A DNA stretch of 25,821 nucleotides, from positions 1-25,821 of the IMG/VR virus record IMGVR_UViG_3300031269_000081, one strand, 5' to 3'. Shown in pieces: positions 17,611 to 19,849 of this stretch; position 1 is the stretch's first letter; every line of letters starts with the position of its first letter. A program made the position numbers and the translations under genes. The stretch comes from a virus. The notes beneath the pieces were generated by a model, which worked only from the letters and a program-made list of their open reading frames with translations, searched no databases and was not told the DNA's origin.

Positions 17611-17994
17611 TCATAATATAACTTCGAACCTATCAACCATCCGTTTGATAGTTTCTTCTGGCACATCGTGGATATTCTTACTACCATGCCGATTCTCAAC
17701 AATGACTGTAGTTACAGTATAATCATATTTTTCAGCTAATGCAAGGTATTTTTGCATTTCCCACTTCTGAGTGAATGTATTTGCCACAGCCACATCAACA
17801 GTCTGTGATTCCATAGCACGTTCACACTCAAATAGACACCATTCATGTGCGGCCTTGATTTGTTTAGCATCAAAGATGTATTCACCCTCTCGCTCAAAAT
17901 ACATATCAGCAGATAGTACCACATCAGCGATTTTCTCAGCAAACGTCGATTTGCCGCAGCCGGGTATACCTCGCACTATATATAACTCACTCAT
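17611..17994 (-). CDS. P-loop kinase (N4BP2/polynucleotide-kinase-like), 127 aa
   Basis: Walker A GIPGCGKST (9-17) is followed by VVLSADMYFEREGEYIFDAK and AHEWCLFECERAM, then VAVANTFTQKWEMQKYLALA (a Walker B-like strand ending with NTF). VIVENRHGSKNIHDVPEET is the likely lid region. This order matches N4BP2-like and T4 Pnkp-like P-loop kinases, although there is no phosphatase domain. It could phosphorylate 5' ends of nucleic acid for the RNA ligase at 24291, or a small molecule. Its start overlaps the helicase C-half stop as ATGA. Confidence 0.8.
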   Translation of the reverse strand: MSELYIVRGIPGCGKSTFAEKIADVVLSADMYFEREGEYIFDAKQIKAAHEWCLFECERAMESQTVDVAVANTFTQKWEMQKYLALAEKYDYTVTTVIVENRHGSKNIHDVPEETIKRMVDRFEVIL

Positions 17995-19178
17995 ACTATC
18001 AATCCATCTATTTTTTTAGGTTCGTTTGGTTTTCTATATCCAAAACTTTCATCATCTTTATTCAGCGTTCCGTCACTCTGTAACAGGTTTTCTTGTGCGG
18101 AATACTCAACATCATACAGTTGCATTTTTGGTGCGTCAACCCCTATTACAAACTTTTCAAAGTAATTTTTATTACCATATCTAGACTTCAATTGTTTCAC
18201 AAGTAGTTGATTTAACGCATCTAATTCATCGGTACGGATGAACGCAAACATGAAATCAGCCGTGGCGGGTAAACCAAATGATTCAGCCGTATTGGTAAGG
18301 TCAACATCGGTGTTACTGTAACCGCTTCTATTAGCCTGTACAGCACTCCAAACAGGAACCTCATACTCAACACCTAATGCCCGCAATTCTTCAGCAATAG
18401 CCTTAACGTAACCATATGAGCCTGTAGTGTTCATTGATACTCGACTACTGGCCATGATTCCAATATAATCCACTAAAATCACATCTGGCTTGAAGTTTTT
18501 CTTCATTGCCAATTCTTGTAGAAGTATCTTAAAATGACCAACATGGGCAGAACTTGTCGGATATTCCTTAACGACTAATTCACCAGTGGTTGTATTGCGC
18601 AATGCATTGATTTTTTTATTGAAACTATCTCGCTCAATATTTTCAACATCATTCACTTCCATATCCATCAAATTAGCATCAATACGATTACTGATAGCTT
18701 CTTCTGACATTTCCAATGTGATGTACAACACATTCTTACCTTGCATCAAATAACTGGATGCAAAGTGAATCATGCCTAAAGTTTTTCCCACGTTAGTATT
18801 GTGACTCGAAAACCCATTAGCATAATATCTGTGATTTTCATGATTAATAACCACATCAACAATTGGTATTTTTTTACCAGTCTTTATTACCTTTATTGGA
18901 TGATATTGATTATCTTCTTTCAGTAATAAATCACCAGTCCTTAAATTTTTACTGAGAACCCATCCAGTTATGGTTTCAAATAAGTGATTTTCATTAACAG
19001 ATACCCTATTACCCGTAATATCCTCAATGATATATTCATCCCATTGACCCTTATTTACATATTCAGATACAGGTACAAATCCATCAGGTGACTTGATTTC
19101 AATATCATATTGATTAATAAGTTCAGCAATTTCTGATATTTTTATTGATAATTCAACATTTTCTTCAATTTCATTCAT
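17991..19178 (-). CDS. C-intein fused to C-terminal half of gp41-type replicative helicase, 395 aa
   Basis: Residues 1-127 are a C-intein ending GFSSHN; residues 128-395 are the C-terminal part of a DnaB-like T4 gp41-type helicase. It begins TNVGKTLGMIHFAS, the second half of the P-loop. The helicase part then has VLYITLEMSEEA, IDANLMD, DVILVDYIGIMASSR (Walker B) and LPATADFMFAFIRTDEL, as in T4 gp41, ending in a basic tail. A stop codon and 41 bases separate it from the N-terminal half, so the full helicase needs trans-splicing. An AAAGG site lies 9 bases before the ATG. Coupled to the kinase by ATGA. Confidence 0.95.
   Translation of the reverse strand: MNEIEENVELSIKISEIAELINQYDIEIKSPDGFVPVSEYVNKGQWDEYIIEDITGNRVSVNENHLFETITGWVLSKNLRTGDLLLKEDNQYHPIKVIKTGKKIPIVDVVINHENHRYYANGFSSHNTNVGKTLGMIHFASSYLMQGKNVLYITLEMSEEAISNRIDANLMDMEVNDVENIERDSFNKKINALRNTTTGELVVKEYPTSSAHVGHFKILLQELAMKKNFKPDVILVDYIGIMASSRVSMNTTGSYGYVKAIAEELRALGVEYEVPVWSAVQANRSGYSNTDVDLTNTAESFGLPATADFMFAFIRTDELDALNQLLVKQLKSRYGNKNYFEKFVIGVDAPKMQLYDVEYSAQENLLQSDGTLNKDDESFGYRKPNEPKKIDGLIV
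18798..19178 (-). other. C-intein of split intein (127 aa), no endonuclease domain
   Basis: The segment begins with an acidic patch (EIEENVELSIKISEIAELI) and carries a block B-like stretch with VNENHLFETITGW, whose His65 stands where the TxxH His is expected. RTGDLLLKEDNQYHPIKVIK follows, then block F (IVDVVINHENHRYYANG) and block G ending SHN127. The next residue is Thr128, a valid +1 nucleophile. At 127 residues there is no room for a homing endonuclease. Confidence 0.93.
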
Positions 19179-19219
19179 CTAATAAACCTTTATTTTATAA
19201 ATAATTAAATCATACTAAC

Positions 19220-19849
19220 TTAGGTTTTCCTTTTCACCCGCACCGTGACTAATGTATCAGGATGTACACATCCCGCTAATATAATGTTCAGCGTTTTATT
19301 AGGAACACCACCATTTGTAATCTTATTAAAGATTTCCAAATCAAATGGAATACGAGCATGTTCCATGTTATAGAATTCAAATCGTTCTTCAGCATCTTCG
19401 AAATAATCATGACCAATATGTGTATCGAAAGAAACCATTAATGCTTCTTTCAATATTTCTGGCATAGCATGTTTAGTTCGTTTTGTATCAGTACCATCAA
19501 TGATACCAATACATTCCATGATACTATTATATAACGATTTCTCCTGACAAAACATTTCTGTTTTATCAACTAACCATTGTTCATCTGGTTCCTCATCTTG
19601 CCTGTAGTCATCAATGCGATTGTAGGCAAGTTCAAATGTTTCTTCATCTAGCCCGTCAAGTTCTGCAATCTCATGTTTCAGTGCATCACGGGTAGGAATT
19701 GAGTTGTATTCTTGAAAATATTTTACATAACTATTAAAAATTACTTTGTCGGCTTCATCTGAGAAATAGGATGTTCGGATGAAGGGTAAAACTTTTCGAG
19801 CGTACTTATCGTTTGTTATTAGATTTGTTATGATAAGTTCTTCTGACAT
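19220..19849 (-). CDS. N-terminal half of gp41-type replicative helicase ending in a 16-residue N-intein, 209 aa
   Basis: Residues 1-193 are the N-terminal helicase region, ending in IPFDLEIFNKITNGGVPNKT and then LNIILAG. Residues 194-209 are a very short N-intein. Joined to TNVGKTLG the junction reads LAGTNVGKT, a complete P-loop like that of T4 gp41, and the product has 461 residues (193 + 268), close to the T4 protein length (about 475). Without splicing the P-loop is cut after its first Gly. The upstream half is translated first and the C-half follows 41 bases later. Confidence 0.95.
   Translation of the reverse strand: MSEELIITNLITNDKYARKVLPFIRTSYFSDEADKVIFNSYVKYFQEYNSIPTRDALKHEIAELDGLDEETFELAYNRIDDYRQDEEPDEQWLVDKTEMFCQEKSLYNSIMECIGIIDGTDTKRTKHAMPEILKEALMVSFDTHIGHDYFEDAEERFEFYNMEHARIPFDLEIFNKITNGGVPNKTLNIILAGCVHPDTLVTVRVKRKT
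19223..19270 (-). other. N-intein of split intein, only 16 aa
   Basis: The segment CVHPDTLVTVRVKRKT starts with the catalytic Cys1 and is a good block A (C[V]xxDTxV). It then ends at TAA with no further intein sequence, so the break point lies far towards the N-terminus. The last six residues are mostly basic, in contrast to the acidic first 24 residues of the C-intein, suggesting charge-guided association. Confidence 0.95.

What the first reader, a model, noticed from the sequence alone, without database searches (positions are those of the whole stretch)
18798..19270. Naturally split intein in a gp41-type replicative helicase, with a 16-residue N-intein
Seen: the upstream gene ends in a P-loop fragment followed by CVHPDTLVTVRVKRKT and TAA; 41 bases later a new gene starts with a 127-residue segment ending in SHN, followed by Thr and the other half of the P-loop. 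Joined, the flanks give LAGTNVGKT, as in T4 gp41, and a 461-residue helicase. Known: most natural split inteins break near the lost endonuclease position (N-part about 100 residues); a small atypical class from environmental phages has very short N-parts. This one is of that class, in helicase context. A 16-residue N-part is near the shortest known, which matters for the mechanism and for protein ligation.
Basis: partly seen in the sequence, partly recalled or inferred. Interest (0 to 1): 0.95.

Follow-up and report, generated by a model that had tools for sequence, protein, structure and literature searches.

The report
Split intein with tiny N-half
A phage makes its DNA-unwinding enzyme as two separate proteins that a self-removing segment, with a first half of only 16 amino acids, very probably stitches together; this is a new example of a known rare type, and its relatives show that such splits have arisen or healed many times.

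Summary
On the minus strand, a gp41-type replicative helicase is encoded by two genes, 41 nt apart and in different frames. The break lies inside the Walker A loop (LAG|TNVGKT). Between the halves sits a class 1 HINT intein, split into a 16-residue N-part (19270-19223) and a 127-residue C-part (19178-18798). All expected catalytic residues are present.

The interpretation, an atypically split intein of the ultra-short-N class, is supported. VidaL, a natural split intein with a 16-residue N-part, is the closest solved structure by sequence and by fold, so the kind is known.

It is not an error: related phage contigs carry at least 49 distinct same-site inteins with the same split architecture. 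The N-part is 14-23 residues, and selection on the C-part is purifying.

New here is the family context. The same site also holds about 20 distinct contiguous mini-inteins. Most split copies carry a homing endonuclease gene, usually antisense HNH, exactly at the split. Others keep only a remnant or, like the window, nothing. The tree needs about 11 contiguous/split switches (at least 6 on well-supported branches), and three close allele pairs differ by insertion or deletion at that point. Splicing itself was not tested.

The parts
19271..19849 (-). N-extein: residues 1-193 of the gp41-type helicase, up to LAG of the Walker A loop
   Evidence: phrog_19 positions 163-361
19223..19270 (-). IntN, 16 residues CVHPDTLVTVRVKRKT (Cys1 at 19270-19268); stop codon 19222-19220
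   Evidence: aligned with relatives
19179..19219 (-). 41-nt intergenic gap, no ORF; holds a homing endonuclease gene in most relatives
19187..19191 (-). AAAGG, Shine-Dalgarno-like, 8 nt before the ATG of the C gene
   Evidence: sequence
18798..19178 (-). IntC, 127 residues, own ATG start; block B His65 (18986-18984), block F Asp108, penultimate His126, Asn127 (18800-18798)
   Evidence: AF2 pLDDT 86.7; Foldseek top hit VidaL
17991..18797 (-). C-extein: 268 residues starting Thr+1 (TNVGKT...), rest of the helicase ATPase domain, with stop
   Evidence: DnaB_C E 1.5e-14; phrog_19 positions 362-590

Best explanation
A T4-type phage helicase gene is broken inside its Walker A (P-loop) codons by a naturally split class 1 mini-intein. 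Each half is translated on its own. The 16-residue IntN, tethered to the helicase N-part, docks as the missing first strands onto the nearly complete HINT domain (IntC) at the head of the helicase C-part. Cys1 forms the thioester with Gly-1, Thr+1 takes over the acyl group, Asn127 cyclises with help from His126, and the two exteins are joined to LAG-TNVGKT, giving a 461-aa helicase. Because neither half alone has a P-loop, splicing should be needed for an active helicase. The window's copy is most simply an endonuclease-free form of a 'fractured gene': in relatives a free-standing homing endonuclease gene, usually antisense HNH, sits exactly at the split, and copies with remnants or nothing also exist. 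Shown: anatomy, homology, catalytic residues, fold, conservation, alleles. Inferred: that splicing occurs, its chemical steps, and loss rather than absence of the endonuclease gene.
For: Anatomy exact. Cys1, block B His65, block F Asp108, His126-Asn127 and Thr+1 are present and conserved in the family. VidaL is the top solved relative by sequence (E 1e-8; family profile 2e-20) and by fold of IntC (E 4e-7). A contiguous same-site relative, L116, models at pLDDT 97 and matches VidaL over its whole length (Z 21.9, 1.4 A, 135 residues). There the split position falls in the loop after strand 7-13. Intein-free alleles are continuous at exactly this point (L001-L080), and the joined product matches gp41-type helicases. 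Same-site split relatives: 50 distinct by full sequence, 49 when only the last 115 residues of IntC are compared, IntN 14-23 aa. dN/dS of IntC 0.04-0.28 in the nine related pairs with computable dS. Gap content: 36 full-length antisense HNH, 3 sense HNH-like, 1 Vsr-like, 2 HNH remnants (L094, L139), 1 uncharacterised 197-nt gap (L113), 6 under 100 nt. L092 and L093 are 97-99% identical in DNA without and with the HNH gene.
Against: No splicing was measured. Curated intein models score below their cut-offs (Pfam Intein_splicing 10.8 vs 35.8 bits; TIGR01445 15.6 vs 24.5), as expected for a diverged member. The window's nearest intein relative (L113) is only about 60% identical, so selection on this very copy could not be measured. 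The 41-nt gap carries no recognisable endonuclease remnant, so loss of the gene in this lineage is inferred from relatives only.
Confidence: 0.93

Rival explanations
1. Assembly or sequencing error: a contiguous mini-intein whose frame was broken artificially.
For: Contiguous inteins of 134-154 residues do exist at this very site in relatives.
Against: The break is not one indel: there is a stop, a 41-nt AT-rich spacer, a Shine-Dalgarno-like site and a fresh ATG preceded by an in-frame TAG. About 50 distinct relatives have the same architecture.
Confidence: 0.02
2. Dead remnant: the intein no longer splices and the helicase is lost or replaced.
For: No activity data; only a fragment of the phage genome is held, so a second helicase could lie elsewhere.
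Against: All catalytic residues and both full-length exteins are intact; relatives show strong purifying selection on IntC and extein.
Confidence: 0.04
3. The halves act as a non-covalent two-subunit helicase without splicing.
For: They are co-encoded and adjacent.
Against: The break cuts the P-loop itself between Gly and Thr, and the 16- and 127-residue intein parts would remain in the nucleotide site; intein-free relatives are joined exactly there.
Confidence: 0.01

Closest known systems
VidaL split intein (PDB 6vgv/6vgw)
   Same: Class 1 HINT fold, Cys-dependent, 16-residue IntN, split after the second strand (S1 position), Gly at -1; best solved match by sequence and structure (PMC13014065)
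   Different: About 28% identical by structure alignment; +1 residue in the solved construct is Ser, not Thr. I recall, but could not verify, that VidaL was also reported from a T4-like helicase.
PolB16 OarG split intein
   Same: Natural S1-type split with a 15-residue IntN (PMC10189870)
   Different: In a PolB polymerase; Ser1/Ser+1; IntC 168 aa
gp41-1 and related split inteins of T4-like helicases
   Same: Same host protein, HINT fold similar
   Different: Canonical split with a long IntN and another insertion site, RSGY|S (both from knowledge). That site is empty in the window; the helicase C-extein is interrupted at the matching residue in L081, L100, L102, L075, L076.
Fractured genes (split inteins with a free-standing homing endonuclease between the halves; Dassa et al. 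2009, cited from PMC6892783)
   Same: Relatives carry endonuclease genes exactly at the split; phage MIJ3 PolB has a split intein with HNH between (PMC6892783)
   Different: The window has no endonuclease gene; in most relatives the HNH gene is antisense

Membership tests
Class 1 intein | Nucleophile at intein position 1 (Cys/Ser) | tested here: met
   Cys at 19270-19268; Cys1 in the split relatives of A2 and invariant in the contiguous ones
Class 1 intein | Block B histidine, block F Asp, penultimate His, C-terminal Asn, +1 Cys/Ser/Thr | tested here: met
   His65, Asp108, His126, Asn127 invariant in A1; +1 Thr
Class 1 intein | HINT fold | tested here: met
   IntC model and contiguous-relative model match inteins at the top of the list
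Class 1 intein | Precise insertion: exteins continuous in intein-free homologues | tested here: met
   L001-L080 read through at the same codon; joined product matches 8dtp
Class 1 intein | Score above curated cut-off of Pfam/NCBIfam intein models (not a defining feature, reported for completeness) | tested here: not met
   10.8 vs 35.8 and 15.6 vs 24.5 bits
Class 1 intein | Protein splicing activity | not testable with these tools
   needs expression
Atypically split, ultra-short-N inteins (VidaL type) | Halves encoded by separate genes; IntN about 15-37 aa | tested here: met
   16 + 127 residues, separate genes; range from PMC13014065
Atypically split, ultra-short-N inteins (VidaL type) | Split at S1, just after the second strand | tested here: met
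   Contiguous relative L116: strand 7-13, loop 14-17, strand 18-23; the split maps to the loop
Fractured gene with free-standing endonuclease | Endonuclease ORF between the two halves | tested here: not met
   41-nt gap without ORF in the window; present in most relatives
gp41-type replicative helicase | Full-length match to T4-type helicase after joining | tested here: met
   E 4e-102 to 8dtp over 4-427; phrog_19

The most novel reading that the evidence does not exclude
At one Walker A site of phage gp41-type helicases, a mini-intein has switched repeatedly between contiguous and ultra-short-N split forms. The switch happens by insertion and loss of homing endonuclease genes (mostly antisense HNH) at one loop after strand 2; the window is an endonuclease-free split end state. 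If so, S1-type split inteins arise by endonuclease gene insertion and can revert by clean deletion.
Probability: 0.6. Interest if true: 0.65.

Novelty: new member of a known kind. Interest (0 to 1): 0.5.

Why it matters
Short natural IntN parts are valuable because they can be made by peptide synthesis. Few are characterised; this family offers about 50 new natural ones, some with 14-15 residues, and matched contiguous versions. The allele series (contiguous, split with endonuclease, split with remnant, split and empty), some of it in closely related phages, makes the question of how split inteins arise, and whether they can rejoin, directly testable.

Tried and rejected
Genome contigs gave no relative; the element was seen only in viral contigs. 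No cultured phage record holds a close copy: all matches are below 60% identity, and those listed with an annotated function lie in UvsX/RecA-like or terminase genes. The search for 'T4Lh' papers and look-ups of the VidaL (PNAS 2020) and fractured-genes papers failed: not held. A literature search for repeated split/contiguous switching found nothing, which is weak evidence because most subscription papers are missing. The IntN+IntC fusion of the window itself could not be folded (not contiguous in any frame), so IntC and a contiguous relative were folded instead. The query carried filler residues before NIILAG that are not from the window; only its VidaL extein residues are used. A regular expression first called L105 contiguous in error; it was removed. 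Labels of endonuclease type for L221, L250, L251 are wrong, without effect on the contiguous/split count. The antisense-HNH tally (37) includes the truncated L094, so 36 are full-length.

Full report
What is there. The window is a 25.8-kb virus record, probably a fragment. On its minus strand two adjacent genes encode the halves of a gp41-type helicase. The first (19849-19220) ends in ...NIILAG followed by 16 residues CVHPDTLVTVRVKRKT and a stop. After 41 nt with an AAAGG motif, and with an in-frame TAG directly before the ATG, the second (19178-17991) starts with 127 residues ending HRYYANGFSSHN, then TNVGKT. Joined, the flanks give a 461-residue protein that aligns without a break to the solved helicase chain 8dtp (E 4e-102). 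The two halves match adjacent positions (…361 / 362…) of the same phage helicase family phrog_19.

What it is. The inserted parts form a class 1 intein. Cys1, a block B His, a block F Asp, the C-terminal His-Asn and Thr+1 are present, and these intein residues are invariant or nearly so in relatives. The best solved relative is VidaL (6vgv), E 1e-8 with the window sequence and 2e-20 with the family profile. It also tops the fold search of the modelled IntC (pLDDT 86.7). A contiguous same-site relative (L116) folds at pLDDT 97 and superposes on VidaL over 135 residues at 1.4 A (Z 21.9). In that model the window's split falls in the loop after strand 7-13. The literature places VidaL's and PolB16's natural splits at the same 'S1' position, with 16- and 15-residue N-parts (PMC13014065, PMC10189870).

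Not an artefact. The intein-free helicase loci of the first scan join at this codon (L001-L080). Viral contigs hold about 50 distinct split inteins at the same site (50 by full sequence, 49 when only the last 115 residues of IntC are compared) with N-parts of 14-23 residues, most often 16. Where measurable, selection on IntC is purifying (dN/dS 0.04-0.28). The window's own nearest kin is L113 (100/98 support), about 60% identical.

What surrounds it in relatives. Twenty distinct loci carry a contiguous mini-intein of 134-154 residues at the same site (the L105 row was a false call). Split copies fall into a series. Most (36) have a full-length antisense HNH homing endonuclease ORF in the gap; a representative scores E 7e-18 to phrog_655, 'homing endonuclease'. 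Three have a sense HNH-like ORF (L117, L174, L239) and L104 a Vsr-like ORF; these last assignments rest on motifs read by eye, as Pfam gave no match. L094 keeps only one end of the HNH gene and L139 the other. L113 has 197 nt without an ORF of 90 or more residues. Six have under 100 nt, as has the window.

Switching. On a tree built without the junction residues, contiguous and split forms change places at least 11 times, at least 6 on well-supported branches (7 and 4 on a smaller set). Parsimony does not give the direction. Three close pairs show the switch. L132 (contiguous) and L130 (split with HNH) are 92% identical over 4.4 kb, with 20 bp against 834 bp at the junction. L203 (contiguous) and L177 (split with HNH) align on both sides to adjacent bases 3050/3051 of L203, with 689 bp of L177 lying between them. 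L127 (contiguous) and L117 (split with a sense HNH-like gene) are 75-81% identical in the flanks. L092 and L093, both split and 97-99% identical, differ at this point by the HNH gene.

How it works. Shown: architecture, catalytic residues, fold, homology, conservation, the allele series. Inferred: the two products meet, the IntN peptide completes the HINT domain, and splicing joins Gly193 to Thr194 of the helicase P-loop. Since the break cuts the P-loop, the phage presumably depends on splicing. The homing endonuclease gene, not the splicing chemistry, most simply explains why the gene is split: it supplies the stop and the new start, and later deletion leaves either a healed contiguous gene or, as in the window, an empty split. 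That last step is inference for the window itself, which keeps no recognisable remnant.

Novelty. A natural split intein with a 16-residue N-part is published (VidaL), and 15 residues too (PolB16). A split intein with an HNH gene between its halves is published for the PolB of phage MIJ3 (PMC6892783), and the fractured-gene arrangement is known (Dassa et al. 2009, cited there). The window is therefore a new, diverged member. What I did not find described is the repeated switching between split and contiguous alleles at one site around an antisense HNH gene; the paper library is incomplete, so this is not proof of novelty.

Noticed in passing
L174, L104, L239 (N-parts upstream of the IntC gene): Predicted natural IntN parts of 14 (CVHPDTKIRVRIRK, L174) and 15 residues (L104, L239); the first would be shorter than the published 15-residue record if functional.
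   Followed up: partly
L130 vs L132; L177 vs L203; L117 vs L127: Close phage pairs in which the same helicase intein is split with an endonuclease gene in one and contiguous in the other.
   Followed up: yes
L081, L100, L102, L075, L076: A second interruption of the helicase at the C-extein residue matching the RSGY|S (gp41-1) site; that site is empty in the window.
   Followed up: no
L106-L108 1500-5041: A distant relative at a G|SGSGKS helicase site with a Vsr-like endonuclease gene between the halves and what looks like a second split intein further along in the same helicase (SQLNR|C).
   Followed up: no
L111 2501-4436: Split intein in a terminase-like gene with an endonuclease-like ORF between the halves, resembling the AceL/GOS-TerL type.
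   Followed up: no
window 1897, 10543, 14014, 14073, 14369, 14986, 16095, 16481, 17304 (minus-strand starts): A run of small genes with similar N-termini (MKKFSSFLTE, MKKFSKFIKE, MQSFKTFLNE, MLSFKEYLIE, MKSFKELQEE), like the T4 capsid-targeting sequence of internal head proteins (from memory); a possible cluster of packaged proteins.
   Followed up: partly
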